A DNA stretch of 21,092 nt from a virus. Shown here piece by piece: positions 324-21,092 of the stretch (positions are counted from its first letter, which is position 1; each line of letters begins with the position of its first letter). The DNA is taken from IMG/VR virus record IMGVR_UViG_3300042479_000196, positions 1 to 21,092 of that record, one strand, 5' to 3'. The position numbers and the translations under genes are program-made. The notes beneath the pieces were generated by a model, which ran no database searches, was not told the origin of the DNA, and was given only the letters and a program-made list of their open reading frames with translations.

Positions 324-1496
324 TTAAGGTGTAACGTCGCCTGCACCTTGGTTTACACGACTTACTAGAGCCGCTGGACGTGCGCTTGGCAAACTTGCTT
401 GTGCTGTTGTACCTGCTGTGATGTTGTTTAATACACCAACGCCAGCTGGGTTACGTACAATTAATGTACCTTCCATAATGAACTGATCCAAACTAGCATC
501 AGCATTACTGAATACTTCGTTGTTAGGACCTAGGTCACGTAAACTACCCCACTGAACAACATCTTCGTTTAAGAAGTAAATGCTGTTAGGTGATACTTGA
601 TCCATAATCCAAGAATCATAGATTTCGTATGTGTAGTTGAAGTCGCCTTCGTATGTGCTGATTGTGTCACCACGTGCTGAGTCAACACGATTGATACCAC
701 GTGATTGTGGCATATTGTCGCTTAAACTAGTACGCAATGATGTTGGAGCAACAACAGTGCGAATCTTAGCATTGTAACGCTGTTCAGCAACAGTTACCAA
801 TTGCTTGTATAACGCAGGGCTAAAGAACTGGTTAGTAAATGTGCCTGTGTAATACTGGCTACCTTGAGCCGCAATGTTGAATGTGTCGTTAGCAGTAGTA
901 GCACTATCGCTTGACTCATTGTTAGTAGAGGTATTCAAACCTGTTACTGTACCTGATGTTGTGTTGAAAGACATTGTACCAGCAAAGCTGTTCAATGAAC
1001 CCATACGACGACCTGTTTGACCAGCTGGTAAACCAGATGCTGAGCCAGATTGACCTGCATACTTAGTACCGATTTGGTCTTGACGAACTAGTTGTAACTC
1101 AACGTCAAACATCAATTCAATCAATTGCTTGACTTCTTGATATGCTTGTGGGTCACCACCAGATTGCATAACAGCACGTGCTGTGCCTGAAGCGGCAATA
1201 ACTGTACTGAAAATCTGTGTGTAGTTACCTAAGTTGAAACGCTGATTTGATTCTGCTTGGCTGGTATTAACAGCGGCACCTTCAACTTGCGCTTGTACTG
1301 CTGGAGCACGATAGATATCGTCTGTCCATAGTGGCAATGTTGAATTAACTTTGCGCTTTTTTGACATACACATATTAAGTACAGGTGTATCGTCTTTAAC
1401 ACGATTTGAAACATCTAAATCTAAGTCTTTGACAACGATATCTGCACCGTATGCTGTTGTACCGTTACCAATTTGACTGGTTGTAATTTCTGCCAT
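324..1496 (-). CDS. Major capsid protein, SU10/DUF5309-like
   Basis: This 390-residue protein probably forms the icosahedral head shell. The N-terminal segment, with DTPVLNM followed by a Lys/Arg cluster and LPLWTDD, and the middle block around RTVVAPTSLRT resemble the SU10-type (DUF5309) major capsid family, which adopts an HK97-like fold. The length is usual for that family. The Ser/Thr/Gly/Asn-rich stretch near residues 150-210 may be a surface loop. An AAGGAG site lies just upstream of the ATG. It follows the scaffold-like gene by 34 bases and is closed by a strong terminator, the usual place for a highly expressed capsid gene. The family call rests on recognised sequence character, not on a search; virion structural role is very likely. 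Confidence 0.85.
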   Translation of the reverse strand: MAEITTSQIGNGTTAYGADIVVKDLDLDVSNRVKDDTPVLNMCMSKKRKVNSTLPLWTDDIYRAPAVQAQVEGAAVNTSQAESNQRFNLGNYTQIFSTVIAASGTARAVMQSGGDPQAYQEVKQLIELMFDVELQLVRQDQIGTKYAGQSGSASGLPAGQTGRRMGSLNSFAGTMSFNTTSGTVTGLNTSTNNESSDSATTANDTFNIAAQGSQYYTGTFTNQFFSPALYKQLVTVAEQRYNAKIRTVVAPTSLRTSLSDNMPQSRGINRVDSARGDTISTYEGDFNYTYEIYDSWIMDQVSPNSIYFLNEDVVQWGSLRDLGPNNEVFSNADASLDQFIMEGTLIVRNPAGVGVLNNITAGTTAQASLPSARPAALVSRVNQGAGDVTP

Positions 1497-3265: not shown

Positions 3266-5548
3266 TTACGAATATACTTTTGGATCTCCCGCTGCCACTG
3301 CCATAAAATCTAATTGACTTTCAGCATCAACGCCTTCCATTTCTGCTTGTATTTGCTGAGCCTTAACAGTATCTAAATTAGCACTTGCTAAACGTTTCTT
3401 ATCTTCAGCACTTGGTTCACGATTCTTCATTGCTTCAGCACCCTGTGCAATCATCTGTTCTACTTCGTCATCGCTTGGTAAATAACTATCTGCGTCTTTT
3501 ACACCTAAAACATACAATGTATCAGCGAACGGCTTCTTGACCTTTTGATATATTTCTTTAGTCAATGTGCCTGCTTGAACCATACCTGTAGTTGTAGTGT
3601 ATAAATCAGTTTGACACTTTTGAATGATTTGTAATCTGCCCAATGCATTTTCTTCACTCATCATACCCAAACTTAGTTCCATACGTATTTGTTTTCTATC
3701 ACAGAAGTTCATATCGTCCCAAGATTGATAATCTAAGTATACAGGTTGTTTGTCTGGGTGAAATTGTTGTGCTAACTTCTTAACACCATAATCATCACCA
3801 TACTGAATTAGTGTTCTCCATACTAACCAAATCGCTTCTTTAAGACCTTCAGCACTGTTACGAACTGTATTGTCTTGTATGATTTGATTAGGAGTCAATG
3901 CTAACTGTAATTTGATACCTGAGTTACCGGGTGCCATAACTTCTGGATTAAACACATCACTTGGTGTAGTCATTCCAACCATAGCCATTGTATCTTGTTG
4001 TATGCGGTTCATAGCAACTTCCAAGAATTGTAAGTTTCCGCTTGGAGGAGGCAATTGGTAGATATCTTTTGCTGGGTCAAACTTACTGTCTAAGATAAAG
4101 ATAGCGGCTTCGCCATCTTGCAACATCTCAAAGTCTAATCTGTCTGGCTTAACACCAATACGAGGAGTTGCTGTTAATAGTCCTAACTGTATCTCAGCAC
4201 GTGCGGCTGAAGTGTTGTATTCTTGCATAGGTATCACTGATTCAGCGACACTCATACCATAGAAGTTACCTGGTAGTGGCTTAGGACACATATTAGCAAC
4301 AGGAATAAACTCTACTTCTCTTGCACTGATAATGTATGAGCCTGAGTAAATCAACTCAACTAGTTCTAACTCACCATCACCATCAATATCATATTTGTTC
4401 CAAACTGTAACGATTGATATTTGACGACTATCTGGATCAGCACTTGCCGCACTAGAAACAGGAATACCCATAACTGGAACACTATCACGTGCGTGAATAG
4501 CTAAGTTGTTTAGTACTGAACCTGCTTGGTATGCACCATTCATATTGTATTCTGCGTGAGTTCTAAACTCTTCCAAGTTGATGCCTGGATATAGTTCCAT
4601 TGCTTCTTGTATAGTCATTGGATCGTAGTAACCACAGAATGGTTGATCCTTCATCTCAGGAACTGTAGGATCACAGATCCAATAGTGTTGAGCGATTGGG
4701 TGAAATCTAATATTGATATTGTAGCCAGTTAGTTTATATTTGGCTGAATAGATTGTGTTGCGATTGATAGCACTGTTAAGTATTTCTTCTTGGCTTTCAA
4801 TAGAACTAGCTTGTATCTCTTGTTGTTCCATTGCCATCATTTCTGGATCCATATCTTCTGGCATTTGCATCATACTATTCATACGACTTTCTACCATAGT
4901 TTTTGCTAACTCACCTTGTTGTTCGCCAAGTAGTTGTTGAACTTCAGCAATAACTTTATCCATTTCAACACTAACTTTACGCTTACTTTGACGCAATGTT
5001 GTTAATCCACTATCGCCTGCTTGTTGCTCAAATGCTCTTAGTTGGTCATTTGTGCCTTGTGTTTCTACATAACGAGTAATAGGCTCACGTATGGGCTTAA
5101 TCATCATCATACCATTCTTGTGCATCATCGCATCCATAATCCAACGCTCTAATATGAAGTGTGGATCATTCATTTGATTAACAACTTTATGAACCATATC
5201 AGTTGCTTGTCTTGCGGCTATTTCATCTTCTTCTGTATCTGCTACAAACTCAAAGTTGATTTCGCCATTTGGCATTAGTCCCTTAGCAACTACTGCTGTT
5301 GCGTAATCTACTACGGGTTTTACGGATGGGTGAATGTAGTCAATGCCATTCACTGGGGCTGTTGAATCCGTTACAGCAAGACATAGATAGTGATAATCTG
5401 AAGCACGGTTGACCGCGTTTTTGGTGCCTAAATAGCGCAAGTAACTTGCCATTTTTACATCCATCTGGTTCTTCATACGAACGAACCTTGCGTTCATTGT
5501 TCTGTTTTGATTGATGTTCTCAACTGGGATATTTTTGATATCTAACAT
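3266..5548 (-). CDS. Portal protein
   Basis: This 760-residue protein is the probable portal, the dodecameric ring at the capsid vertex through which DNA enters and leaves. Size and layout fit large podoviral portals (the N4 portal is of similar length). The N-terminal 150 residues carry conserved-looking segments such as SVKPVVDYATAVVAKG and HFILERWIMDAM. Residues about 165-255 form a Met/Gln/Glu-rich insertion that may be flexible. The central part contains AISKEV-type barrel and wing-like segments and MCPKPLPGNFYGMSVAESV, a block typical of portals (path through the clip and stem). It lies between terminase and scaffold/capsid genes, the canonical order. The start ATG has only a distant AAAGG (13 bases upstream). 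Confidence 0.82.
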   Translation of the reverse strand: MLDIKNIPVENINQNRTMNARFVRMKNQMDVKMASYLRYLGTKNAVNRASDYHYLCLAVTDSTAPVNGIDYIHPSVKPVVDYATAVVAKGLMPNGEINFEFVADTEEDEIAARQATDMVHKVVNQMNDPHFILERWIMDAMMHKNGMMMIKPIREPITRYVETQGTNDQLRAFEQQAGDSGLTTLRQSKRKVSVEMDKVIAEVQQLLGEQQGELAKTMVESRMNSMMQMPEDMDPEMMAMEQQEIQASSIESQEEILNSAINRNTIYSAKYKLTGYNINIRFHPIAQHYWICDPTVPEMKDQPFCGYYDPMTIQEAMELYPGINLEEFRTHAEYNMNGAYQAGSVLNNLAIHARDSVPVMGIPVSSAASADPDSRQISIVTVWNKYDIDGDGELELVELIYSGSYIISAREVEFIPVANMCPKPLPGNFYGMSVAESVIPMQEYNTSAARAEIQLGLLTATPRIGVKPDRLDFEMLQDGEAAIFILDSKFDPAKDIYQLPPPSGNLQFLEVAMNRIQQDTMAMVGMTTPSDVFNPEVMAPGNSGIKLQLALTPNQIIQDNTVRNSAEGLKEAIWLVWRTLIQYGDDYGVKKLAQQFHPDKQPVYLDYQSWDDMNFCDRKQIRMELSLGMMSEENALGRLQIIQKCQTDLYTTTTGMVQAGTLTKEIYQKVKKPFADTLYVLGVKDADSYLPSDDEVEQMIAQGAEAMKNREPSAEDKKRLASANLDTVKAQQIQAEMEGVDAESQLDFMAVAAGDPKVYS

Positions 5549-6473: not shown

Positions 6474-8084
6474 TTAGTTTGCTGAATATGCTTTTTTCCA
6501 AGCAGGTTTGTTAGTATCATCGTGCTTGACGTATCTGTCTCGTTGTGCCATCATTCTTTGTTGAGGACTACGATTATCCCACGGTTCAGCAATACCATTG
6601 AGACAAGCCAGTATAGCATATCTACAACTATCAATACAGTCGTCTGGGTCACTGAATCTACCCTGTACGTCTACATAATAGTTTTGTGCTTCACTTAGAA
6701 AGTTTGTACAGTTTTCGTTAATCATCAAACTACCCACTTCTAACATTTGACGCATTTGATTGATACCATAACTCTTATGATTAGTTGTGCGACCTTCACT
6801 ATCTGGTGGATTCATAATCGCTTTCTCATATACGTTTAGTTCATAACTCTCAAATAGTTCACGTATTGATGCCGCACTCATAGTGTATCTGCCACTAGTG
6901 TTTGCGTCAGCAGGTAAAACGATAGGAGTACCAAACACTTCAGGACGAAGGAGATGATTGATATACTGAGTGGGGACTGCTTCTTCAATACCCTGCACAA
7001 TAATCTGTTTATGTAAATAAGCGGTTCGCTCATATGGTTCCCAATACATTAGTGATATAACTGTTTTATCATTGACTAAGCCTAAGTCAAGTGCGATAAC
7101 TCTATGTATGTTAGGCAATCGTGTGAAATCAATTTCACCCGTCTTATATGTAGGCCAGTTGTTGATTTGGAATACAGCACCTTTACCCATAACAGGCTTA
7201 CCTGCCATACGTGCTTCACGTTCGTGTGGTAAATAATCTCGCTCCAATTGTCTGCGAGTTTCTTTTAATAAGAATGGATGACCCCAAGGATCGTATTCTG
7301 GAACATCATCCCAAGCAACACGAATATAGTTGTATCCTTCTTCTTTGTTCCAGAACTTACTAACCAATCCATTCAATCCTTTGAGGGGAGTAAAAGAACA
7401 TAAAACCTTACCTTGTGTAGTTGCTGTACGAGTTACAATCTCACTAAAGAAATCATCTGGTGGTTGTTCGTCAAATACGGCTAAGTTAAGTTTGAAACCC
7501 TGTAGTTGTCTAACTTCTTGCGTATAATTGGCAAATAACAGATAACTATTACCACCAGACTTATGCTTAATTTCACACCCAATATTATTGGCGCCGTCAT
7601 TACGCATTGTACTAGTAATAATACAGTCACGTGGTATAGCACCAGATCCAAGATTTTCAGTGATTTTGACATCCTGTGTTCCTAACAATTCATTTTGTAA
7701 TACAAGAGCAACTTGGCTCCAACCCTCACCAGCAACCATTGCTGTGATAGGTCCTTCATAACGAAAGCCTTCCCACCATTCAGGATATAATCCAGTGAGA
7801 TGCATTGCTGTCTCAAAACAAGTAGATACTGTTTTACCAATACGATTGGCTGCAAGAATACCTCTACGTTCGTGTATGCCAGTTTTGAAAAACTCAAGTT
7901 GATGCTGAAATGGTCTAAAATACTTTAGTTGGTTGTATTTCATATCATCAGCAACACTGATGCTTAGATCCATTAAACTACTTTTTAATGGTCCCGGTAT
8001 AGTTTTGAGACTGTCAATAGTGAGATTGTTTTTATCCACACTATATCGCAATGCCCTCGCCATTAGAACATCTTCGCCTAGCAT
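6474..8084 (-). CDS. terL: Terminase large subunit (packaging ATPase/nuclease)
   Basis: This 536-residue protein drives DNA into the procapsid and cuts the genome. The ATPase domain shows a Walker A-type loop AANRIGKT at residues 78-85, a Walker B LAVFDE at 201-206 with the catalytic Glu, and a coupling motif SFTP at 230-233. The RNase H-like nuclease domain follows, with acidic residues at D333 (ALDLG), D393 (PADAN) and D482/D485 (SDPDDCID). The length is normal. The start has AAAGG seven bases upstream and shares one base with the upstream stop (TAATG), so translation is coupled to the 99-aa gene. All key residues are present and the enzyme looks intact. Confidence 0.95.
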   Translation of the reverse strand: MLGEDVLMARALRYSVDKNNLTIDSLKTIPGPLKSSLMDLSISVADDMKYNQLKYFRPFQHQLEFFKTGIHERRGILAANRIGKTVSTCFETAMHLTGLYPEWWEGFRYEGPITAMVAGEGWSQVALVLQNELLGTQDVKITENLGSGAIPRDCIITSTMRNDGANNIGCEIKHKSGGNSYLLFANYTQEVRQLQGFKLNLAVFDEQPPDDFFSEIVTRTATTQGKVLCSFTPLKGLNGLVSKFWNKEEGYNYIRVAWDDVPEYDPWGHPFLLKETRRQLERDYLPHEREARMAGKPVMGKGAVFQINNWPTYKTGEIDFTRLPNIHRVIALDLGLVNDKTVISLMYWEPYERTAYLHKQIIVQGIEEAVPTQYINHLLRPEVFGTPIVLPADANTSGRYTMSAASIRELFESYELNVYEKAIMNPPDSEGRTTNHKSYGINQMRQMLEVGSLMINENCTNFLSEAQNYYVDVQGRFSDPDDCIDSCRYAILACLNGIAEPWDNRSPQQRMMAQRDRYVKHDDTNKPAWKKAYSAN

Positions 8085-11768: not shown

Positions 11769-11929
11769 TTTGATTTTCCTTTTGTTGTTTTCTTAGCCGT
11801 TTTTGCTGATTGCTTAAACGCACTCGCTGTTGGGGCGCCTTTAGTGCCGGGCTTACGCATCTTTTCACCAGAGCCTGCTTTTATGCGTTCTCGTTTGGCG
11901 TTTATATTTGCATATAATCCATTTTTCAT
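11765..11929 (-). CDS. Basic microprotein, 54 aa
   Basis: The start at 11929 (MKNGLYANIN) is chosen because it lies one base after the stop of the upstream gene; a longer frame from 12019 would overlap the whole C-terminus of that gene. The protein reads KNGLYANINAKRERIKAG, then GSGEKMRKPGTKGAPTA, then a Lys/Thr-rich tail (KTAKKTTKGKSK). This N-terminal block recurs, as I remember, in small proteins of many aquatic phages, often next to a DUF6321-like gene as here. It is very basic and may bind nucleic acid; function unproven. Confidence 0.78.
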   Translation of the reverse strand: MKNGLYANINAKRERIKAGSGEKMRKPGTKGAPTASAFKQSAKTAKKTTKGKSK

Positions 11930-11930
11930 A

Positions 11931-12155
11931 TTAACATCCCCATCTCTTTCTTGCGGCTTTGCCTCTTTCACCATCCCAACCTTCGCTTCTAGCACAAAAA
12001 CTTTTTTGTCTAGGACCACTCTTAGTTGGTGCTTTCAAATTACTACCAGTTGCCTTGTTATACTTGGCACGACCTTTAGCGGTTAAACCAGCGCCTTTGC
12101 TTGCAGGTAATTTCTCACCTCTGCCAACACTTAGTTTAACTTTCTTAGTAGCCAT
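11931..12155 (-). CDS. DUF6321-like small protein, 74 aa
   Basis: The start at 12155 (MATKKVKLSV) follows the previous stop by one base and has AGAAGAAA upstream; the longer frame from 12200 is not supported. The block KGAGLTAKGRAKYNKATGSN followed by LKAP and SFCAR, with a Trp near the end (RKRWGC), matches the DUF6321-type proteins common in aquatic phages. It is basic, with two cysteines that could pair or bind metal. No function is established for the family. Coupled on both sides to other microproteins. Confidence 0.82.
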   Translation of the reverse strand: MATKKVKLSVGRGEKLPASKGAGLTAKGRAKYNKATGSNLKAPTKSGPRQKSFCARSEGWDGERGKAARKRWGC

Positions 12156-12156
12156 A

Positions 12157-12297
12157 TTATTTCTTCTTTTTACGCAACATTGAAAAATCACTACCGTCAA
12201 TCTTGCCGTTTTTATTCTTGTCCATTGCTTTTTGCTTTGGCGACAACTTGTCAGTTTTTTTATCTTTACTGTTTGTAGTTGGTTTTTTGTTCATCAT
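12157..12297 (-). CDS. EF-hand microprotein, 46 aa
   Basis: This 46-codon ORF starts MMNKKPTTNS and ends LRKKKK, one base before the DUF6321-like start. Residues 26-38 read DKNKNGKIDGSDF, which fits the 12-residue EF-hand calcium loop: ligands at positions 1 (D), 3 (N), 5 (N), 9 (D) and 12 (D), invariant Gly at 6 and Ile at 8. Position 12 is Asp rather than the usual Glu. The flanking residues are basic and a single loop of this kind would bind calcium weakly unless it dimerises or docks on a partner, as in dockerin-type loops. Its role in the phage is unknown. Confidence 0.75.
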   Translation of the reverse strand: MMNKKPTTNSKDKKTDKLSPKQKAMDKNKNGKIDGSDFSMLRKKKK

Positions 12298-12302
12298 AAT
12301 GT

Positions 12303-12310
12303 TATTTATT
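12303..12310 (-). promoter_or_regulatory. TAAATA element (AATAAATA)
   Basis: This variant of the TATAAATA element overlaps the end of the 116-aa gene and lies six bases before the EF-hand ATG. Together with the following bases (ATAAATA, one or two bases, CATTATG) it nearly matches the start region of the 116-aa gene at 12654-12668. Confidence 0.25.
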
Positions 12311-12656
12311 CTTTTTTTATTCCAGCGAGTTTAGCCAATGCATCTGTAAAGGCTTTTTGTTTCATATCAATAGTGTCTTGGCTATCAGTAATCTCAATCT
12401 TGCTAATATGTGTCATTAACTTATTTAATATTAGATTGTGATATTTGATGACTAGTTGATGATCCTTACTATCTCTAGCATTGATGAAGTCTTCCATCAA
12501 TATAGTTTCATAACCAACACCTTTTGTTTTTCTTTCCAATGCGGCTAATAGCCCATTTACTGATACTTGATTAGTGCCACCTTTAGGTCTGCCCGCACCT
12601 GGACGAACACCGCCCTTGCCCTTTGCTTTTTCTGTTTTGATTTCTGTCTTTTCCAT
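12306..12656 (-). CDS. Putative DNA-binding protein, candidate terminase small subunit
   Basis: This 116-residue protein has a basic N-terminus with RPGAGRPKGGTNQ at residues 18-30, an AT-hook-like GRPKG core that frequently opens phage small terminase subunits. The rest is helical (VNGLLAALERKTKG, DHQLVIKYHNLILNKL). A small terminase recognises the packaging site and stimulates the large subunit. Against this call, the gene lies about 4 kb from terL and another candidate touches terL at 8084-8383. The start has no clear ribosome binding site and sits four bases after a CATAAATA element. Confidence 0.6.
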   Translation of the reverse strand: MEKTEIKTEKAKGKGGVRPGAGRPKGGTNQVSVNGLLAALERKTKGVGYETILMEDFINARDSKDHQLVIKYHNLILNKLMTHISKIEITDSQDTIDMKQKAFTDALAKLAGIKKE

Positions 12657-12660
12657 AATG

Positions 12661-12668
12661 TATTTATG
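12661..12668 (-). promoter_or_regulatory. TAAATA element (CATAAATA)
   Basis: CATAAATA lies immediately before the start of the 116-aa gene, with a second copy of the core (CCTAAATA, 12679-12672) overlapping the glycosyltransferase stop. Transcription from the inner copy would give a nearly leaderless mRNA; the outer one would leave a short leader. Confidence 0.3.
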
Positions 12669-12670
12669 CT

Positions 12671-13792
12671 TTATTTAGGATAATCTTTCTTTAGCCAATC
12701 TAAGTTGGTTCTATTTGGATTAGGTTCATACCATCCATTACCTGTTTGTATGTTTAGTATGCTTTGAAAGTATTCCTCATACATTGGACCTACTTTGTCT
12801 AATGTAAAATTCTCTGCCCAAGTTCTACAATCTATTGGCTTGATGTTCTCTATATTCTCTGTTGCCCATATAAACTGCTCAAACGTTCTACAACGATATC
12901 CTGTGACACCGTGAATGTTGTTTTCTACGAAACTTCCCCAATCTGTTGTGATTGTGGGTGTGCCACTCATCAATAGTTCTACTTGTACACCACCAAATGG
13001 CTCTACATATTGACTGGGAACAAACGCACCCTTAGCATTAGCCATTAGTTCTCTGCGTGTTTCTGTATCAGCATAGCCAGCAAACAACACATTGTCAGGA
13101 AACTTGATATTGTCTGGATTCTGTCCTGCAACGATAATATTGATATGTGGTAGTTTCTCTGCTATTTGATTGACGATATGAATACCCTTGCCCTCATACA
13201 CTCTACCCAAAAACAAATAGTAATCTTGCTTTACATCTTTGTATGTAAAGTCATCTGGGTCAAAGTAGTTTGGTATGACAACATCATACCATCCTTGATT
13301 ACAACTGCCTACATTGTTTAAGCCACAATAGGCGTGATAGATAGCGTAACTCTCAAATATCTTCCATTTTGCGAAATGACCACCAGCATATCCAATGCCT
13401 GGCTCTACACATATCATATCTGTATGAGCATCACATATGGGTTTTACTCCACTGCCCCAGAATGGTAGTATAAAATCGTTTTTTTGTTTTCGTTTGCCTA
13501 CTTCTCTAATACTGTTAGAGAAAAATGTAGTGTAAGCGTGGTCGTTGTTGTCAAACTTAAAGAAGTTCTTACGCCAGTCGTATGATCCATATGCTTTTTT
13601 TAAGTCATCGTTAGTAATGACTGATACGTGTTCATCACAAATCACATCGCTATCTGTGTGACCATAATGTATTATTTCGTGCCCTAACTTTTTCATCATC
13701 TTGCCGAACTTCCACACTTTTTGTGTGTAAGCGCAAGCGACATATTCTTTACTTGTAACGGTGTGGGGCAAACCTAGTATATGAAATCTCAT
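12671..13792 (-). CDS. Glycosyltransferase, GT4-like
   Basis: This 373-residue protein looks like a GT-B fold retaining glycosyltransferase. The C-terminal nucleotide-sugar half is clear: LFLGRVYEGKG at 193-203, the typical basic pocket Arg/Lys, and EPFGGVQVE at 264-272, the E-x7-E motif of GT4 enzymes, followed by SGTPTITTDWG. The N-terminal acceptor half diverges (GLPHT near residue 7, GIGYAGGHFAKW near 132). It would transfer a sugar to phage DNA, a virion protein or a host envelope glycan; the substrate cannot be read from sequence. It is followed by a tail of the island and diverges from the GNAT gene. AGGAAAAG precedes the ATG. Confidence 0.88.
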   Translation of the reverse strand: MRFHILGLPHTVTSKEYVACAYTQKVWKFGKMMKKLGHEIIHYGHTDSDVICDEHVSVITNDDLKKAYGSYDWRKNFFKFDNNDHAYTTFFSNSIREVGKRKQKNDFILPFWGSGVKPICDAHTDMICVEPGIGYAGGHFAKWKIFESYAIYHAYCGLNNVGSCNQGWYDVVIPNYFDPDDFTYKDVKQDYYLFLGRVYEGKGIHIVNQIAEKLPHINIIVAGQNPDNIKFPDNVLFAGYADTETRRELMANAKGAFVPSQYVEPFGGVQVELLMSGTPTITTDWGSFVENNIHGVTGYRCRTFEQFIWATENIENIKPIDCRTWAENFTLDKVGPMYEEYFQSILNIQTGNGWYEPNPNRTNLDWLKKDYPK

Positions 13793-13807
13793 TCTATTCT
13801 TTTCCTA

Positions 13808-13828
13808 AACATATATTTATGATATGTT
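13808..13828. promoter_or_regulatory. Inverted repeat in the divergent gap, operator-like
   Basis: AACATAT (13808-13814) and ATATGTT (13822-13828) form a perfect 7-bp inverted repeat with a 7-base centre, in the 62-base gap between the divergent glycosyltransferase and acetyltransferase genes. The centre carries CATAAATA on the minus strand (13821-13814), and GTTAAATA runs from it on the plus strand (13826-13833). A dyad over two divergent promoter-like elements suggests a shared operator. Confidence 0.45.
13814..13821 (-). promoter_or_regulatory. TAAATA element upstream of glycosyltransferase (CATAAATA)
   Basis: CATAAATA on the minus strand lies 21 bases upstream of the glycosyltransferase ATG, leaving room for a start and the AGGA site. 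It is well placed to be a promoter and overlaps the dyad. Confidence 0.4.
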
Positions 13829-13833
13829 AAATA
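13826..13833 (+). promoter_or_regulatory. Possible plus-strand TAAATA element
   Basis: GTTAAATA precedes the only plus-strand gene by 21 bases, mirroring the minus-strand element at 13814-13821. The match is to the core only. Confidence 0.3.
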
Positions 13834-13854
13834 TTGTATTATAAAGGAATAGAA

Positions 13855-14373
13855 ATGAAATATACTTGGCGCCCTGCAAATGGATTAGATGTAAAACAAA
13901 TAGTTGATATAACATATCCATACTTATTTGAAGTTCAAGACGTATGGACTATTGATGAGATTGCATTTAGTCACAATATTACTCTTGCTATTGTAAATCA
14001 GTTTTTTTCACCAACTACTGAGTTATTTTCTGTTGCTACTGACAGTAATAACAATATTGTTGCATATACTTGGGCTAAGAAAGGTGAGAAAATGGCTTGG
14101 TCTAATGAAGAAATGTTATCTATTAAATTTGCACATCTTAAGATTGACTTATCAAATAGAGATAAGATAAGTTTGATTAAAGATATGTTAGATATATGGG
14201 AAAGTTTTGCAAAACTAGCACAGGTTAATATTATCTGTAGTACTACAATGCGTGAAACTCAATCTACTTTTTTAAAATTACACGAAAGAAAAGGTTACAT
14301 TGTGCGAGGCAGTGCCGCATATAAGCGATTACCTACTAGGCAGGTACCTAGTAGAGATTCACTCCAAAGTTGA
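13855..14373 (+). CDS. GNAT-like acetyltransferase, 172 aa
   Basis: This is the only gene on the plus strand. The ATG at 13855 is chosen because AAGGA (13844-13848) lies six bases upstream; a TTG at 13834 is possible but not supported. The C-terminal part reads as a GNAT fold: a beta strand (IICSTTM) followed by a helix (TQSTFLKLHERKG) and a strand (YIVRGSAAYKRL), like motif B of these enzymes. A clear motif A acetyl-CoA loop (Q-x-x-G-x-G/A) is not visible; SNRDK stands near its place, so activity is uncertain. Such proteins occur in phages, where they may modify host or virion proteins. Its 3' end overlaps the Dps-like gene by 15 bases, tail to tail. Confidence 0.68.
   Translation: MKYTWRPANGLDVKQIVDITYPYLFEVQDVWTIDEIAFSHNITLAIVNQFFSPTTELFSVATDSNNNIVAYTWAKKGEKMAWSNEEMLSIKFAHLKIDLSNRDKISLIKDMLDIWESFAKLAQVNIICSTTMRETQSTFLKLHERKGYIVRGSAAYKRLPTRQVPSRDSLQS
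14333..14354. terminator. Inverted repeat between convergent genes
   Basis: CTACTAGG and CCTAGTAG form a perfect 8-bp stem with a 6-base loop. It lies inside the last codons of the plus-strand gene and four bases past the stop of the minus-strand Dps-like gene. There is no T-run on either side, so it would be a weak or rho-assisted bidirectional terminator, or an mRNA-stabilising hairpin. Confidence 0.5.
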
Positions 14374-14790
14374 TCGTAACATCCATATGCTCTTTGCCAA
14401 ATCTAATATTTGATCCTGAGCGTAGTTGGCTATTTCTTTGTGACCTTCGTCTTCAGCAATAGCCATAAGTTCTTCGTATGTTCCTTTAAGTAATTCCAAA
14501 TCATCTTTAACTCCTTCTAAAAATCCATCTGCATCTTCTTCAAAGATGCCTGTGCCTATTTCACTTTGATTTAATACATCTTGTATTTCACAAGGCATAT
14601 AATCATCTAATGTGCGTAGTAGTTCTCCAAGAATATCTATCTGTGCTTGTCGTCTTTCATAGACACCTTGTAGTAACTTATGGTCACTGCGAAAGTTGCG
14701 ACCCAAAATGTTAATGTGCGCTACGTGTGAGCGATAGTAAGCAACAAAGTTATTGTTGAAGGTTTGTGTTAGTATTTCTTGTGTTGTCAT
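14359..14790 (-). CDS. Dps-like ferritin (mini-ferritin)
   Basis: This 143-residue protein matches the Dps family. The four ferroxidase ligands of E. coli Dps (H51, H63, D78, E82) have exact counterparts at H25, H37, D52 and E56, with identical spacing, in HINILGRNF, DH, ID and GE contexts. The Dps C-terminal signature appears as SIWMLRSTLE at 134-143. Members form 12-subunit shells that oxidise iron with peroxide and store it. The Trp next to the first His in most Dps proteins is Ile here, and the N-terminus has no Lys, so the DNA-binding tail of E. coli Dps is absent. Iron or peroxide control is more likely than DNA compaction. The ribosome binding site is weak (GATAAG). Confidence 0.82.
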   Translation of the reverse strand: MTTQEILTQTFNNNFVAYYRSHVAHINILGRNFRSDHKLLQGVYERRQAQIDILGELLRTLDDYMPCEIQDVLNQSEIGTGIFEEDADGFLEGVKDDLELLKGTYEELMAIAEDEGHKEIANYAQDQILDLAKSIWMLRSTLE

Positions 14791-14798
14791 ATCTATAC

Positions 14799-15503
14799 TT
14801 ATCTGTTTATTTGTGCTAGTTCTTCAGGTCTCCAAGGTCTACCTGACATTGGGTTTATTTCCATTCCTCTATAAGGACCTTTAGTAGGTACGGGAGGACC
14901 TAATGGTGCTGAGTAAGTTAGTGCTCCTAATCCTACTCCTGCTTTTGCTATATTGCCTGCATTTTGCATTACCTTTTCTGCGGCAACCTGTCGCATTTTA
15001 TTTGTGTAATCCATTCCTCGTTGCATCATACCAGGAGCTTGCGTTTGTGGTGCAACAGTTGTGGGTGCTGTAACTTGTGCTGGTGATACAGGACCTTTAG
15101 GAAATTGTACTGTATTACTACCCAACTGATTAGCCATTTGATTGAATGCACCTGCACCACCTGTTCCAGTAGCACGTGCGGCTTGTCCAATATTTTGTGC
15201 GGCTTTCCCAGCTTGACTTACTTGTGAGGCTTGTGCTGGTGATATAGGACCTTTATAAGCATCAATAAGTTTTTTTACACCATATGCGGCTGCGGCTGCA
15301 GGAACACCATACTCAAGCACATTCCCTACTGCATTCATACCCATACCTTGTGCTAAACCTGTGTATTCCTCACTACGGTCCATAGGACCTAATCCTTGTT
15401 GAGGAGGAGGACTAGTTTGACTACCAAGATAAGCATTTATTTCCTCATCAGTATAGCCATTTGCTTTTGCTTCGTCTATCTTTGCTTGTAATGTTGGATC
15501 CAT
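14799..15503 (-). CDS. Putative virion/ejection-associated protein, 234 aa
   Basis: The N-terminus contains KIDEAKANGYTDEEINAYLG, a short helical motif (A-x-x-x-G-Y-T/S-D-E-E-I) found at the start of internal virion and injection proteins in several phages. Residues 60-90 are Ala-rich and rather hydrophobic (VPAAAAAYGV), a possible membrane-active helix. KGPISPAQ and KGPVSPAQ form an internal repeat, and the C-terminus is Pro-rich with GRPWRPEEL. The start has AGGAAG upstream and follows the 863-aa gene by one base. A role in the ejected protein set is inferred from context. Confidence 0.72.
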   Translation of the reverse strand: MDPTLQAKIDEAKANGYTDEEINAYLGSQTSPPPQQGLGPMDRSEEYTGLAQGMGMNAVGNVLEYGVPAAAAAYGVKKLIDAYKGPISPAQASQVSQAGKAAQNIGQAARATGTGGAGAFNQMANQLGSNTVQFPKGPVSPAQVTAPTTVAPQTQAPGMMQRGMDYTNKMRQVAAEKVMQNAGNIAKAGVGLGALTYSAPLGPPVPTKGPYRGMEINPMSGRPWRPEELAQINR

Positions 15504-15504
15504 T

Positions 15505-18096
15505 TTATCTTCCTAATATTTCTGCTATTGGCTTAGTCTTCTTCCAAGTTCCTGAATTAGGATCATACTCTGGAATAGGGAACTTTCTATAACCTTCACG
15601 AACCGCGGCAGTTGTTGCACCATTACCTGCAATATATTGGGCACGTTGTTTAGCAATGTTGCCATATACTTCGGATAACGATTGTGATTCTTTACGCCAC
15701 GCTTTATCAAGTTGTAATGCGTTAGTCGCTGGTTGTGTATCAGCCCAATCTCCTTTGTATCTTGCCAAGTCACCACTAAACTGACTTTGTGCCATAGCAT
15801 TGTATGCGCCAAGTGCTGGGACTTTAGTAGGATCAACGTTGCTTTCTCTATTAGCACGTTGTTCAGCATCACTAACTGAACCAGGACCTGCTGTTTGTTT
15901 TAGTGTCGCGGCATTGATACGTTGGTTAGCAATATTGTATTCTTCTAATGCTGTTCTTTCTTGTGATGTTAAATTTAATAATGCTAAACGCTGACTAACT
16001 TCTGCTTCCGGTTTGAATATTCCACCAAAAATATCACGCATAATACTTAATTTCTGATCACCTGGAGCTCCTTGTGCGGCATTGTATAAGCCAAATAGTT
16101 TATTGCTATCAACACCAGGTCTATCAAAGATAGCGAACTGTTGTTTGCGAACTGAACTAACTGTGTCACCCGCTTGTGCTTGTGGGCGAACTTCTTCATC
16201 AAGTATCTTGTTAAAACTTTCACTACGCTTACCTGCAACTTGAATTGCTTCTTTAGTTTGTGCTTCACCAAGTGCGGCATTTTGTCTTTGTTGCCATACG
16301 GGCATTCCTGCTGTTGATACAGGAACATTAGTTGCTGGTGCACCACCTTGTGCTTGTTGTAATCGTTGTTGAGCGGCAGCACGTTCAGTTTGGAATGTTT
16401 GTAGGCTTTTGGCTGCACCGGGTGCACCGGGTTTTAGACGTTTAATCTCTTTGTCAAGGGACTCAATATCACTTTGTGCTCTACGAACTGCTGCCGGATC
16501 AACCGAAGTCGTTGCAACTGTTGTAGTAGCCGCTTGTTGAGGATTCACATATGAAGCCGGCGCTCCACCTTGTTGTCCTGGGAATGCTGGCAACGGTTGT
16601 GGTATAAAGCCTTCACCACCTGCTTTACCTGCACTACCGGCTGCGGCTGCACTATAAACATTTTGAACGTTCTGTGCTGGAGTTGATAAGCCAGTTGCAT
16701 CATAACGAGTTTTACCAGATTGGAAGTAAGTATCACGGGTAACGGGATCGGTAAATACTTGTCCAGTAATAACTTGTGGTTGACCATCAGGCCCTATAAT
16801 AGTTTTCTGCATTAATCCGCCAGCACCTTGTGGCAACAAGAATGATTTGGTTGGCATAGCGGCTGCACTTAATTCTGCAAGTTTTTCTTGACCTATTTTT
16901 TTACCAGTAGCGTCAAATCCTACAATGATATTGCCATTCTTATCACGTCCAGCACTAAACTTTTGACCTTTACTATCAACAGCACTTTCCATTGTTATTG
17001 TAGGATTAATAAGTTCCATTTCTTTCTGTGCTAAATCGTTTAATCCTAAACGAGCAAGTAATATGGCTTTTATATAACTGCCTTCTTTGTTTTTTTCCTT
17101 AAGGTATCTAGCGTAATCTGTAGGTGTCGCTTCAGCAAGTTTTTGATTGGCATCATCTATCCCTTTTTGTTTTTTATAATCATCAAACATAAAGTTTTGC
17201 GCTAATGCTTTGTTGCCTTCACCAGCATTTGGATCAGCAATGATTGTTGCAAAACTATTGCGGCGCTTTGCTGGATCTTTTTCGTTAGCACCATTAATGA
17301 TTGCTTCACGGTATATATCTTCTGTTCTGGCTCCACCTTCGCCTTGACCTTCGGCTATCCTATTATCTTGTGATTGTTGTGCTGCCATACCCATTTGTGC
17401 TAATGTAGGCAATGCTGCCAATCCTGGCACTGCCGGTCTTTGAGCATTAGCAGATACAGTTGGTGGCAAATTGGCTTGATTACTTGCTACTTGTACTCCG
17501 GGGCCTGGAGTTGGAGGTTGTCCAATGTTAGGGGATGGTCTGTTAGCCATCTCAGGACTAATAGGTCCTTGACTTGGCAATTGTTGCATCATTGCGACGG
17601 GTCGTTGCTGATTAGCGACCGGTTGTTGACGATATTGTTGAAACTGTTGTGCGAACTGTTCTTGTTGTGGGCGTAGTTGTTCTTCTGTAGGAGCAACAGG
17701 ACCAATTACAGTTGGTGTTAATGGATTACTGGCACTTAAATCTCTTGCGCTACCCTCAATCTTTACTGTCTGTTCGCCAGTTTGTGGATTAGTTGTAATC
17801 GTTTGTTTTACTGGAGTAGGTTCGGCTGCAGCCTCATCTTGTTGTGTTGCTAATCTTCTACGTAGTGTTTCTTCTGGGTCAGTAAAGAGTTGTGCCGCTT
17901 GATTCATCCTAGCTTGGGCACTGTTCATTCTGTTGTCAAACGCTTGACGAGTTATATCACCATAACCCATTGGCTCTGTGTAACCACCACCACTGGCAAC
18001 CGCTTCATCAGACATAGCCTGTGCTCGTCTGCGTTTACGTTCTTCTTCGTCGGGATCGTAACCAACCCCATAATCCATATAATCATATAGTGCCAT
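15505..18096 (-). CDS. Large Gln/Ala-rich internal virion-like protein, 863 aa
   Basis: This is the longest complete gene here. The N-terminal 110 residues are charged with a DPDEEERKRRR cluster. A long Pro/Gln-rich low-complexity region follows (about 120-230), then a mostly helical body, a beta-like patch (about 360-440, with a GRDKNGNIIVGFDATGKKIG hairpin-like run), a Gly/Ala-rich region around 490-540, and helical C-terminal domains ending KPIAEILGR. No lysozyme or transglycosylase motif is evident. Size, composition and its place between two Ala/Gln-rich genes fit an internal or DNA-ejection protein of podovirus type. The start has AAGGTATAAACA before ATG. It is not homologous to any protein I can name. 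Confidence 0.75.
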   Translation of the reverse strand: MALYDYMDYGVGYDPDEEERKRRRAQAMSDEAVASGGGYTEPMGYGDITRQAFDNRMNSAQARMNQAAQLFTDPEETLRRRLATQQDEAAAEPTPVKQTITTNPQTGEQTVKIEGSARDLSASNPLTPTVIGPVAPTEEQLRPQQEQFAQQFQQYRQQPVANQQRPVAMMQQLPSQGPISPEMANRPSPNIGQPPTPGPGVQVASNQANLPPTVSANAQRPAVPGLAALPTLAQMGMAAQQSQDNRIAEGQGEGGARTEDIYREAIINGANEKDPAKRRNSFATIIADPNAGEGNKALAQNFMFDDYKKQKGIDDANQKLAEATPTDYARYLKEKNKEGSYIKAILLARLGLNDLAQKEMELINPTITMESAVDSKGQKFSAGRDKNGNIIVGFDATGKKIGQEKLAELSAAAMPTKSFLLPQGAGGLMQKTIIGPDGQPQVITGQVFTDPVTRDTYFQSGKTRYDATGLSTPAQNVQNVYSAAAAGSAGKAGGEGFIPQPLPAFPGQQGGAPASYVNPQQAATTTVATTSVDPAAVRRAQSDIESLDKEIKRLKPGAPGAAKSLQTFQTERAAAQQRLQQAQGGAPATNVPVSTAGMPVWQQRQNAALGEAQTKEAIQVAGKRSESFNKILDEEVRPQAQAGDTVSSVRKQQFAIFDRPGVDSNKLFGLYNAAQGAPGDQKLSIMRDIFGGIFKPEAEVSQRLALLNLTSQERTALEEYNIANQRINAATLKQTAGPGSVSDAEQRANRESNVDPTKVPALGAYNAMAQSQFSGDLARYKGDWADTQPATNALQLDKAWRKESQSLSEVYGNIAKQRAQYIAGNGATTAAVREGYRKFPIPEYDPNSGTWKKTKPIAEILGR

Positions 18097-18106
18097 TGTT
18101 TATACC

Positions 18107-18820
18107 TTAAAATTTGAAGCCAGCATTAAAGCCTGTTTGAGTAGAACCTTGCGTTCCACCAAAGTTAGCATTATAAGTTGACTGAGGAGTACCATATAAG
18201 CCGGCTAAGTATTTGCTTACTGTATCTAAAGGTATGCCGGCTGCTGTGACACCAGTTCCGGCTGCACCTAATGCTTGACCTAAACTTGATTGCCCATATC
18301 CAGCTAATGCTTGACCGGCTTGTAGTCGTTGTCCGGCAATCTGGCTTTGTAAGTCCGCGGCTGTTTTTGCTTGTAGTGCGGCGTTCTGTCCAGCAAGTTG
18401 TTGTCCTGCTAACGCTTGACGAGCACTACCTAAATTACCACTGCCACCAAACTGTGCTTGTTGTTGTGCTAAGTTTTGCATATATTGTGCTTGTGCTGGA
18501 GCCAGTGCTGATTGTATTTGATTACGTTCGTAGTCTGGACTGAATAAACTTTGTAATCCAGCAACACCTGAGCGTGATGCAGATTCACCAAGTTCTCCTG
18601 CTGTTTGTTGTACTTGTCCTGCTGTACCTGCTAAGTTTTGTGCGGCATTTACCGTACCACCTACATTTTGATTATAAACATCAGTAATGGCTTGTGAACC
18701 TTGCTTGAATGCAGGGATAATGTTCTCTGTTAAAAAGCCAGTTTTTGCTTTGATATCGGCTACTTGTTCTGGTATTAAATCAGGGGTTGTGTATGTTGTT
18801 GAGGCTCCACCGTATGGCAT
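18107..18820 (-). CDS. Putative DNA-ejection/internal protein, 236 aa
   Basis: The start at 18820 (MPYGGASTTY) is preferred: AAGGAAA lies eight bases upstream, whereas the frame open to 18886 has no site. The protein is Ala/Gln/Gly-rich and helical (residues about 100-200: LAQQQAQ, ARQALAGQQLAGQ, GQRLQAGQALAGYG). The last part reads GIPLDTVSKYLAGLYGTPQSTYNANFGGTQGS, a motif I associate with phage injection or head proteins, ending GFKF. Together with the next two genes it forms a probable ejection set. Function inferred. Confidence 0.73.
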   Translation of the reverse strand: MPYGGASTTYTTPDLIPEQVADIKAKTGFLTENIIPAFKQGSQAITDVYNQNVGGTVNAAQNLAGTAGQVQQTAGELGESASRSGVAGLQSLFSPDYERNQIQSALAPAQAQYMQNLAQQQAQFGGSGNLGSARQALAGQQLAGQNAALQAKTAADLQSQIAGQRLQAGQALAGYGQSSLGQALGAAGTGVTAAGIPLDTVSKYLAGLYGTPQSTYNANFGGTQGSTQTGFNAGFKF

Positions 18821-18840
18821 TTTAATTTCCTTATAATATG

Positions 18841-18848
18841 TATTTAGT
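18841..18848 (-). promoter_or_regulatory. TAAATA element (ACTAAATA)
   Basis: ACTAAATA on the minus strand lies in the 49-base gap between the collagen-like gene and the 236-aa gene, 20 bases before the latter's ATG. It is the same variant as before the portal. Confidence 0.3.
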
Positions 18849-18869
18849 GTTTCATTACTATTGACTAAC

Positions 18870-21092
18870 TTACGGGTTATCAACATATGGATTTACAATA
18901 GCATCAACTTGTCGTTGTATTCTATAATAAGTTTCCCAATCGCCTGCTGCCGCTGCCGCTTGTTGTCTAGTAAACCAATCACTACCTAATTGTCTTGTTA
19001 TTTCAGCGTTGATAGGTGATGTTGATGTTGGCGTTGATGTTATTTGTGTTGGTGATACTGGTGCTATCACTGGTAGTTGTCCAACTTTGCTGTAATCAAA
19101 GTTCATAACATTTCTGTTAGCATCAGTGATAGGAACTCGTCTTGTTGCTGGTGCTACTTTAGGTGTTGTGCTTGTCTTACCCAATATCATATCATTGATT
19201 TCTTCCATAGTCAATGGGCGAGCCATTTGCTGTAATCCATATGGTGTGTCTGGCGCATTTGGATTAGTGTTATACAACGTATCGTTGAATGTAGGACCTG
19301 TTTGGAATGCTTTCATTCCCCAATTAAACTTACTCTGTGCAGGATCGTTTGTATTGTAGAATGCACTTGGTCTAATAAAGCCTGGATTTAAGTATCCTAA
19401 GTTAGTTGGTGTTGTTGGTGGAATAAATCGTGTAGCGCCTGTAGCCGCTGTAGCCCCAGTAGTTCCGGTAGCGCCTGTAGCCGCTGTAGCACCTGTTGCG
19501 GCACTTGCTCCTGTTGCGGCTGACGCTCCACTACTACCAGAAGCACCACTACTTCCTGATGCTCCAGATGATCCTGATGCTCCACTTGCGCCCGATGCTC
19601 CACTTGCGCCCGATGCTCCACTTGCTCCACTTGCTCCGCTACTTCCGGATGCTCCACTTGCTCCCGATGATCCTGATGCTCCACTTGCTCCGCTACTTCC
19701 GGACGCTCCTGAGCTTCCTGACGCACCTTTAGTGCCACTTGCGCCCACGGTGCCCGAAGCACCAACTGTTCCACTTGCACCCACAGTTCCTGATGCACCT
19801 ACTGTGCCCGAAGCACCAACTGTTCCACTTGCACCCACAGTTCCTGATGCACCTACGGTTCCTGTAGCACCAGAGGCTGCACCCGATGATCCACTGGCTG
19901 CTCCTGTTGATCCACTTGCTCCTGTTGCGGCGCCTGTTGCACCCGATGCGGCTGAAGTTGCACCACTCGCGGCTCCAGTAGCCCCACTGGTTGCTCCAAC
20001 TGTTCCGCTTGCCCCTACTGTTCCTGTAGCACCTACTACACCTGATGCCCCACTTGTTGCACCTGTTGCGGCTCCAGTAGCACCACTGGCTGCTCCTGTT
20101 GCTCCTGTTGCGGCTGTTGTTGCGCCACTTGCACCTGTAGTTAGTTTTAATGCCGCATCAATATCTTTTTGACTTACGCCATATGTTTCCATTGCTTCAG
20201 CAAGTTGTTGCGCTGTAGGATTACCTGCCATAAATGTTCTAATGGCTTCGTAGTAAGCATCCATACCTTGATTGTTTCTGGCATAGGCTGCACCTGGGCT
20301 ATCATCACTTGACGCGGCACTACTTGCGCCTACTGCGCTACTTGCTCCTACAGCACTGCTTGCTCCAACTGTTCCAGTAGCACCAACGACGGGTCCAGTT
20401 GCGCCTGTATCTCCACCACCGCCTGTATTCTCACCACCGATTGTAGTTGTTGGTGTGCCACCGCTACCTATTACAACTGGGCCTGTGTCTGTTACAACAT
20501 TAGTATCTCTGTCACGCTTTGCTGTAACAACTATTTCAGGAATGTTATTTGGATCGGTATTAGTTGTAAGTGCGGCAGCCGCAATTCTTAGCGCATCTTG
20601 GTCCGCTTGTGGTAAGTTGTTTATTGACGCATTATTTGGATCGTTGATGAATGTAGCAATAGCAACTTTAGATGGATCAGTTGCATCTGCTTTAGTAGTG
20701 CCTGCTGTAGGATTTAACAATGATAATAGATAGGCTACTGCCCCGTGTCCTATTACATCAAGTGCTGCCGCTATAGCAGGAATAAACGCCAATGCTGTAT
20801 CTACCGTTGGGTTACTATTGATTTGGTCTAACTTAGTTTGGAAGTCATTCACCAAACTATCTACATTTGTATTGTTTGCTTGATTTACAAAATCGTTATT
20901 GACTAAATCAGTAGGTGTTACTGCACCAGTTGTAGAACCTGTATCTATTGTAGTTGAACCAGTTCCACCTGTTATTGTATCAGTAGGAATGACAGGTCCT
21001 GTGTCTAATCCTGTTGTATCTGTGATGTTACCTGTTGTAATCTCAGCCGGCGTAACTGCACCTGTTGTTACATTATTAGTATTGCCACTACC
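18870..21092 (-). CDS. Collagen-like virion protein, 5' end outside the window
   Basis: The reading frame is open to the window edge: 740 codons are visible and the true start is beyond 21092. A TTG at 20855 is an internal codon. The visible N-terminal part is Thr/Gly/Asn-rich with two copies of TTGAVTP. A hydrophobic Ala-rich stretch follows ([22 protein letters not shown] split by charges), then EIVVTAKR, which resembles a TonB-box-like sequence. From about 20138 down to 19436 lies a run of roughly 78 Gly-Ala-Ser/Thr triplets, a collagen-like region; a shorter Gly-rich block lies near 20310-20415. The C-terminal 160 residues are globular, with [11 protein letters not shown] and [20 protein letters not shown]. 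Probably a trimeric virion fibre-like or ejected protein. Confidence 0.82.
19751..19858. repeat. 54-bp tandem repeat in the collagen-like gene
   Basis: Two adjacent 54-base units (19751-19804 and 19805-19858) differ by one base near the end. Each encodes six Gly-x-y triplets (GASGTV three times). Shorter 18-base and 9-base periodicities continue on both sides across about 19436-20138, so copy number is likely to vary in frame. Confidence 0.88.

What the first reader, a model, noticed from the sequence alone, without database searches (positions are those of the whole stretch)
14359..14790. Phage gene encodes a Dps-like ferritin with an intact ferroxidase centre
The spacings H25-H37-D52-E56 equal those of E. 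coli Dps H51-H63-D78-E82 exactly, and the family's WMLR C-terminus is present. That is direct sequence evidence for a working iron-oxidising site. It lacks the Lys-rich N-terminal tail used for DNA binding and replaces the usual adjacent Trp by Ile. A phage could use it to protect its DNA from iron and peroxide during infection, to hold iron, or to be packaged in the virion. I infer that it is cargo, as it sits among accessory genes inside the structural block.
Basis: partly seen in the sequence, partly recalled or inferred. Interest (0 to 1): 0.75.

Follow-up and report, generated by a model that had tools for sequence, protein, structure and literature searches.

The report
Dps-type ferritin kept by phages
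This phage gene makes a small iron-storing protein of the Dps type, and a group of related uncultured phages keeps it in the same place, so it probably protects the infected cell and the new phage DNA from iron damage; genes of this kind are already known in phages.

Summary
Window 14359-14790 (minus strand, 143 aa) is a Dps-family mini-ferritin: Pfam Ferritin E 6e-12, PHROG 3636 E 6e-24; AlphaFold model pLDDT 96.9 with the Dps helix pattern; VIA Z 20-22 against solved Dps. H25-H37-D52-E56 align with E. coli Dps H51-H63-D78-E82 and are invariant in 63 of 63 distinct sequences. 'Intact' is too strong: the fifth canonical ligand (Asp/Glu67) is Gln here (Q40 E16 G6 K1 in the 63), and the neighbouring Trp is absent in all 63. 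The protein is acidic (net -15) without a Lys-rich tail, so tail-driven DNA binding is unlikely.

It is not loose cargo: 25 of 25 terminase-fetched loci with a readable slot carry it, while 28 of 28 long contigs of the sister clade have no Ferritin match. In 46 of 79 relatives a covarying pseudoknotted RNA starts at its stop codon; the window lacks this RNA.

Phage Dps and ferritin as ROS defence are in print: new member of a known kind. Most likely role: iron oxidation and storage late in infection. Activity, timing and virion packaging are untested.

The parts
14359..14790 (-). Dps-type mini-ferritin gene, 143 aa plus stop (ATG at 14790-14788, TGA at 14361-14359)
14716..14718 (-). codon of His25 (E. 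coli Dps His51 equivalent), ferroxidase ligand
   Evidence: alignment; invariant 63 of 63
14680..14682 (-). codon of His37 (E. coli His63 equivalent)
14635..14637 (-). codon of Asp52 (E. coli Asp78 equivalent)
14623..14625 (-). codon of Glu56 (E. coli Glu82 equivalent)
14668..14670 (-). codon of Gln41 at the place of the canonical Asp/Glu67 site-B ligand; Q40 E16 G6 K1 in 63 distinct sequences
14713..14715 (-). codon of Ile26 at the place of E. coli Trp52; V40 I10 A9 L4, no Trp in 63
14725..14727 (-). codon of His22 at the place of E. coli Lys48; His in 63 of 63
14799..15503 (-). 234-aa ORF directly upstream; its stop ends 8 nt before the Dps start, so Dps is the next cistron
   Evidence: no Pfam match above cut-off
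15505..18096 (-). 863-aa ORF of the same gene run; an internal virion or ejection role would be inference from place and composition only
   Evidence: no Pfam match above cut-off and no PHROG match; no significant profile match to 13 SU10 proteins
13834..14373 (+). convergent ORF whose 3' end overlaps the Dps 3' end; called GNAT in my scripts, a label from recall without a Pfam or NCBIfam match; found in 78 of 80 Dps loci, on the strand opposite to Dps
6474..8084 (-). large terminase subunit, used as Dps-independent anchor
324..1496 (-). SU10-type major capsid protein
3266..5548 (-). SU10-type portal protein

Best explanation
The gene encodes a phage-owned Dps mini-ferritin that is a fixed gene of one clade of podovirus-like phages. 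Most likely it is made late in infection, assembles like other Dps proteins into a hollow shell with ferroxidase sites at subunit interfaces, oxidises Fe2+ (with O2 or H2O2) and stores the ferric mineral. That removes the fuel for Fenton chemistry while phage DNA is replicated and packed, and keeps the cell productive. It does this without binding DNA through a basic tail. Shown: the gene, a confident fold prediction, conservation of four ligands, low dN/dS, the fixed slot directly behind another gene. Inferred: shell assembly, activity with Gln at the fifth ligand, late timing, benefit to the phage.
For: Family: PF00210 6e-12, PHROG 3636 6e-24, and 53 of 53 aligned members match PHROG 3636. 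Fold: pLDDT 96.9, pTM 0.91, helices A-B-BC-C-D; Foldseek top hits are Dps proteins (HP-NAP TM 0.93), VIA Z 20-22 over 141-143 residues. Site: H25, H37, D52, E56 invariant in 63 of 63 distinct sequences and identical in E. coli, S-EIV1, SU10 and LAh_8. dN/dS 0.067-0.221 in the 11 of 12 pairs where it could be computed, 6 of these 11 with dS above 1, where it is unreliable. Kept by the clade: 25 of 25 terminase-fetched loci with a readable slot; no Ferritin match in 28 of 28 long sister contigs and in the complete sister genome MW202484. Operon place: in 70 of 73 rows (window included) with an assignable upstream ORF, that ORF ends between 4 nt inside and 14 nt before the Dps start. No tail; net charge -12 to -20 in 61 full-length sequences; a solved Dps is titled as protecting DNA without binding (1o9r). 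A non-acidic residue at position 67 is tolerated in NpDps4 (Asn67), which still binds two irons (PMC6675082, passages), and CAIP has Gln there (alignment).
Against: I found no activity, oligomer or expression data for this clade. The fifth ligand is Gln, Gly or Lys in 47 of 63 sequences, so the site may work differently or more slowly. Loss of the Trp next to His25 in all 63 is unexplained. No late promoter was found: promoter-like sites in 11900-21092 did not exceed shuffles (19 against a mean of 22.4). The upstream genes could not be identified, so late timing rests on place and on an RNA element that in other phages follows lysis genes and that this window lacks.
Confidence: 0.62

Rival explanations
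1. The protein is a virion component: assembled or subunit Dps is packed in the head, or ejected, and handles iron or peroxide at the start of infection.
For: It follows large unidentified genes beside the structural genes. In phage SU10, whose capsid and portal families match this window, the Dps-domain protein CDS67 was seen by mass spectrometry with 6 peptides and 35.8% coverage (PMC4281155, passages). In the BFVD search 3 of the 18 models at E <= 0.001 bear the name prohead protease.
Against: The SU10 sample was only PEG-precipitated and its authors warn that early or middle proteins could be present; DNA polymerase and thioredoxin were seen too. In the passages of the SU10 virion paper that I saw, gp20-24 are the ejection proteins, and its main text holds no occurrence of 'Dps' (its supplement was not seen). 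SU10 Dps is a middle gene. The window's upstream proteins show no significant profile match to SU10 gp20-24 (single SU10 sequences, so a weak test).
Confidence: 0.13
2. It binds and compacts phage or host DNA directly, as E. coli Dps does.
For: PHROG 3636 is named DNA binding protein.
Against: No N-terminal tail, net charge -15 (pI 4.5), -12 to -20 in 61 full-length sequences. Only 15.4 bits against the curated cut-off of 114 for the E. coli Dps equivalog model.
Confidence: 0.05
3. It serves the host more than the phage: iron and peroxide control that lets an infected cell survive light-driven or grazer-made oxidants until lysis, as proposed for aquatic phages.
For: PMC6802176 reports oxidative-stress genes in 254 of its phage genomes, names ferritin among them, and proposes phage-mediated ROS defence (passages).
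Against: Not separable from the best explanation by sequence; a gene at the end of a late-type run would come late for host survival.
Confidence: 0.13
4. The ferroxidase centre is crippled and the protein is now a metal-binding or purely structural shell.
For: Site-B carboxylate absent in 47 of 63 and Trp absent in 63 of 63.
Against: The four other ligands are invariant in 63 of 63 while many other positions vary; dN/dS is low; His22 is also invariant.
Confidence: 0.07

Closest known systems
HP-NAP and CAIP (Helicobacter Dps proteins, 1ji4/4eve and 5lbh)
   Same: Best sequence and fold matches: phmmer 3.5e-12 and 6.5e-12, TM 0.91-0.93, nearly the same length, no tail, His at 22, 25 and 37; CAIP also has Gln at 41.
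   Different: 27-30% identity; both have Trp at 26, the 63 clade sequences never do.
Dps of cyanophage S-EIV1 (AHV82153)
   Same: His22, non-Trp 26 (Leu), non-acidic 41 (Gly) and the four main ligands.
   Different: 28% identity in that alignment; N-terminal extension; sits beside sulfate adenylyltransferase, not in a structural block.
Dps-domain protein CDS67 of phage SU10 and other C3 podoviruses
   Same: Dps fold in BFVD and the four main ligands; its phage has the same capsid and portal families.
   Different: 14% identity, Trp at 26, Asp at 41, Lys at 22, N-terminal extension; a middle gene.
Dps and catalase genes of gut Gratiaviridae and Flandersviridae phages
   Same: Phage-borne Dps proposed as oxidative-stress protection (PMC8008677, passages).
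   Different: Anaerobe hosts; sequences not compared here.
His-type ferroxidase Dps of cyanobacteria (NpDps4)
   Same: Non-acidic residue at position 67 (PMC6675082, passages).
   Different: NpDps4 has His at 78; the 63 clade sequences keep Asp there.

Membership tests
Dps family (mini-ferritin) | Match to ferritin-like profile above curated cut-off | tested here: met
   PF00210 46.1 bits, cut-off 24.5
Dps family (mini-ferritin) | Four-helix bundle with a short helix between B and C and no fifth helix | tested here: met
   Model helices 3-27, 33-60, 69-75, 87-114, 118-142, pLDDT 96.9; Z 20-22 to solved Dps
Dps family (mini-ferritin) | His-His and Asp-Glu ligands at the H51, H63, D78, E82 places | tested here: met
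   Alignment with E. coli Dps; invariant in 63 of 63
Dps family (mini-ferritin) | Twelve-subunit shell with inter-subunit ferroxidase centres | not testable with these tools
   Single-chain model only
Dps family (mini-ferritin) | Fe2+ oxidation with H2O2 or O2 | not testable with these tools
   No assay
Canonical five-ligand ferroxidase subclass | Asp or Glu at position 67 | tested here: not met
   Gln41 in the window; Q40 E16 G6 K1 in 63 sequences; definition from PMC6675082 (passages)
E. coli Dps equivalog (NCBIfam PRK09448) | Score above the curated cut-off of 114 bits | tested here: not met
   15.4 bits
DNA-binding Dps with Lys-rich N-terminal tail | Basic N-terminal extension | tested here: not met
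   No extension; net charge -15
PHROG 3636 (phage Dps-like proteins) | Match to the PHROG profile over its length | tested here: met
   6e-24, profile 8-147 of 149; 53 of 53 members

The most novel reading that the evidence does not exclude
The Dps is the closing cistron of the late transcript of a phage clade, made in bulk just before or during head filling, with a variant iron site (His22 in place of Lys48, Gln or another residue in place of Asp67, no Trp) tuned to another oxidant, and it travels with or inside the new virion as an iron-handling part. In many relatives a conserved pseudoknotted RNA ends that message.
Probability: 0.12. Interest if true: 0.62.

Novelty: new member of a known kind. 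Interest (0 to 1): 0.36.

Why it matters
It turns a single odd gene into a clade-wide trait: one group of podovirus-like phages keeps a ferritin in a fixed slot, while no ferritin was found in its sister group. That makes the question of why a phage needs its own iron store testable by comparing the two groups, and it offers Dps proteins without the Trp and mostly without the fifth ligand for testing what those residues do. It does not open a new class of system.

Tried and rejected
Rejected: chance spacing match (profiles, fold, 63 of 63 invariance). Rejected: loose accessory cargo. Rejected: tail-driven DNA binding as the main role. Tried without result: close relatives in named phages (tblastn of 50,697 records at E <= 1: 12 records, 2 of them over at least 80% of the query; best S-EIV1, E 5e-7). 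Tried without result: bacterial relatives of the clade (one scan of genome contigs: 308 pattern matches, 1 relative at 22% identity in an Acholeplasmataceae MAG), so the source of the gene is open; that scan needs conserved words and would miss distant Dps. Tried without result: homology of the upstream ORFs to SU10 structural and ejection proteins (best probabilities 12-20%; the SU10 side was single sequences). Promoter and terminator scans gave no more sites than shuffles. Literature: ten searches; I recognised no paper on this clade in the listings, but most subscription papers are not in the library, so this is no claim of absence.

Limits of the counts. One search kept the best 80 of 86 Dps loci. 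The residue table used the window plus 79 loci (L080 dropped, a fragment with a stop in frame) = 80 rows, 63 distinct, a few of them short at the N-terminus. One search used the 61 of these that are at least 140 aa, window included. The distances are from the tblastn match start, which for L013, L019 and L020 is not the start codon. One search kept the best 80 of 251 terminase loci; 25 of the 80 met my rule (gene called terS more than 2,500 bases into the locus), and several of these are contigs that one search had found too. One locus outside the rule, L090 (that gene at 1,558, terminase 97% identical), shows no Dps; in the window Dps ends 1.7 kb upstream of that gene, so its slot is probably not in view. 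In one search I sent 28 long sister contigs and 9 window-clade contigs; 6 of the 9 had been fetched through Dps and the other 3 are among the 25, so the 9 of 9 adds little; their completeness is not known and a gap could hide a gene. In the second terminase scan (scored) 2 of 80 loci carry Dps and both are window-clade by terminase identity (84% and 79%); L239 (87%) does not reach the slot; four loci of intermediate identity (L233, L234, L236, L237) show no Dps, but their slot is not in view, so where the gene was gained is not known. The RNA model was built from 33 of the loci it was then searched on, and its helices were read from the same alignment, which favours them over the slid controls.

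Full report
What is there. The finding's coordinates hold one ORF on the minus strand, 143 aa, start 14790, stop 14361-14359. The window is itself one virus record of 21,092 bases with an SU10-type capsid protein and portal and a large terminase. ARAGORN finds no tRNA and Rfam no match at gathering score.

Is it Dps? Pfam Ferritin matches at 6.2e-12 (46.1 bits, cut-off 24.5) over residues 5-143, PHROG 3636 at 6e-24, and the best solved structures by sequence are HP-NAP (3.5e-12) and CAIP (6.5e-12). AlphaFold on 53 aligned clade members gives pLDDT 96.9 and pTM 0.91 with helices at 3-27, 33-60, 69-75, 87-114 and 118-142. The first 50 Foldseek rows in the PDB are Dps-type proteins under various names (HP-NAP TM 0.93), and VIA-align gives Z 20-22, rmsd 1.2-1.7 over 141-143 residues for its 50 rows. 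Foldseek against viral models finds other phage Dps, first an uncultured Caudovirales protein at 45% identity. Among 50,697 named phage records tblastn finds only 12 at E <= 1, the best S-EIV1 at 5e-7.

The iron site. In the alignment with E. coli K-12 Dps, H25, H37, D52 and E56 fall on H51, H63, D78 and E82, and these columns are identical in S-EIV1, SU10 and LAh_8 as well. Among 80 rows (63 distinct sequences) from the window and 79 IMG/VR loci they are invariant. So is H22, at the place of E. coli Lys48, which with Asp67 and Asp78 forms the second site in E. coli Dps according to PMC6150300 (passages). The fifth canonical ligand, Asp/Glu at position 67 (PMC6675082, passages), is Gln41 here and Q40, E16, G6, K1 in the 63. 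Position 26 is V40, I10, A9, L4 and never Trp. PMC6675082 describes a cyanobacterial Dps with Asn67 that still binds two irons at its centre, so loss of the carboxylate does not rule out a working site; that protein also has two extra His ligands, which the phage clade lacks at position 78. I therefore call the site 'main ligands conserved, fifth replaced', not intact.

DNA binding. No N-terminal extension; 61 full-length sequences have net charge -12 to -20 and pI 4.2-4.7, the window protein -15 and 4.5. Tail-driven DNA binding is unlikely. A solved Dps is titled as protecting DNA without binding it (1o9r).

Selection. Pairwise dN/dS between the window gene and 12 relatives is 0.067-0.221 in the 11 pairs where it could be computed; in 6 of the 11 dS exceeds 1, so only the 5 closer pairs (0.067-0.137) should be trusted.

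Where it sits. In the 80 Dps loci the gene lies between a run of large ORFs (o18107 found in 45, o15505 in 51, o14799 in 24; many loci are too short to show them) and the gene I call terS (78 of 80); a convergent ORF on the other strand was found in 78 of 80. The glycosyltransferase near it in the window occurs in only 4 of 80. Of 80 rows (window and 79 loci), 73 have an assignable upstream ORF, and in 70 of these it ends between 4 nt inside and 14 nt before the Dps start; in the window the gap is 8 nt.

Is it a core gene? Loci fetched by Dps cannot answer this, so I fetched loci by the large terminase. Of the best 80 of 251, 25 show the slot by my rule, and 25 of 25 have Dps. A second scan led by the terminase of the Manatee Spring podovirus MW202484 (51% identity to the window's by tblastn, 49% in the alignment) gave 80 loci, of which two carry Dps, both with window-like terminases. 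Pfam Ferritin searched over whole records found nothing in 28 of 28 sister contigs of 39-44 kb and nothing in the complete MW202484, and hits in 9 of 9 window-clade contigs, 6 of which had been chosen through Dps. So the gene marks one clade and was not found in its sister.

How it most likely works. A soluble mini-ferritin, made late, that oxidises and stores iron in the infected cell. Published readings of phage Dps and ferritin point the same way: gut phages (PMC8008677, passages), lake phages (PMC6802176, passages), Lactobacillus phages (PMC6669764, passages). Late timing is inferred from the place of the gene and from the RNA element described next; no promoter evidence supports it.

The RNA beside it. 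In 53 of 79 Dps loci a covariance model made from 33 of them finds an element of about 100 nt; in 46 of the 53 it is on the Dps strand and begins at the Dps stop (within -80 to +30 nt), in 6 it lies 159-962 nt further on, in one it is on the other strand. Four helices, the first crossing two others (a pseudoknot), are paired in 99.4% of 528 cells; all 16 pairs have changes on both sides; 0 of 500 shuffles reach the covariation score, and slid controls fall to 26-44% paired. The helices were read from this same alignment. Rfam's Atu_At1 matches along its full length but below its gathering score of 60 (41.7 bits, E 4.1e-6; 36 bits, E 9.7e-5), and 7 whole loci give no match at gathering level. 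Of 75 of these listed loci, many on contigs already held, 36 have Dps by the profile. I read 18 without Dps, some of them near copies of each other: in 15 a same-strand ORF ends at the start of the element; in 4 of 4 tested, that gene run holds a phage lysozyme. So the element marks ends of late-type gene runs in other phages too. The window lacks it, and so do 36 of 36 sister-clade loci searched. It is a lead of its own and not part of the Dps claim.

Verdict. Well supported as a Dps-family gene, clade-wide rather than cargo; activity, timing and virion packaging untested. New member of a known kind; the unusual points are the fixed slot, the missing Trp and the replaced fifth ligand.

Noticed in passing
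L005:5356-5474, L032:8427-8545, L047:454-572 and 50 further loci; absent from the window: A pseudoknotted, strongly covarying RNA of about 100 nt begins at the Dps stop in 46 of 79 relatives and at the end of lysis-type gene runs in other phages (at least 120 stretches in IMG/VR, scan cut at its limit). Rfam Atu_At1 (Rhizobiales sRNA) matches it end to end below the gathering score. In the helices 5 G-U cells against 1 C-A cell weakly favour the Dps strand. Possible 3'-end or stability element of late phage messages.
   Followed up: partly
window 14333-14354: Where relatives have that RNA, the window has a perfect 8-bp inverted repeat (CTACTAGG/CCTAGTAG) just behind the Dps stop, inside the 3' end of the convergent ORF (read).
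   Followed up: no
window 5606-6241; L046:4773 and L057:7503: A gene matching PHROG 3704, named ferredoxin, has no Pfam match; in several cyanophage records the same stretch is annotated purM or PurM, so the name looks doubtful. It moves: between terminase and portal in the window, directly behind Dps on the opposite strand in L046 and L057; found in 4 of 80 Dps loci, many of which do not reach the terminase end.
   Followed up: partly
window 12671-13792: Glycosyltransferase about 70% identical to genes of large cyanophages such as S-CAM7, found in only 4 of 80 Dps loci: a candidate for recent exchange.
   Followed up: partly
window 18870-20855: 661-aa ORF with long Gly-Ala-Ser/Thr collagen-like triplet runs; phages often have such runs in fibres (recalled).
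   Followed up: no
BFVD models A0A6J7WPK9, A0A6J7XDU5, A0A6J7WIS1: Uncultured phage proteins named prohead protease carry a part that matches the Dps model; either fusions or naming errors.
   Followed up: no
L022, L024, L045, L066, L068, L074 and others: Some Dps loci carry about 3.5-5 kb of extra sequence between the convergent ORF and the gene called terS.
   Followed up: no
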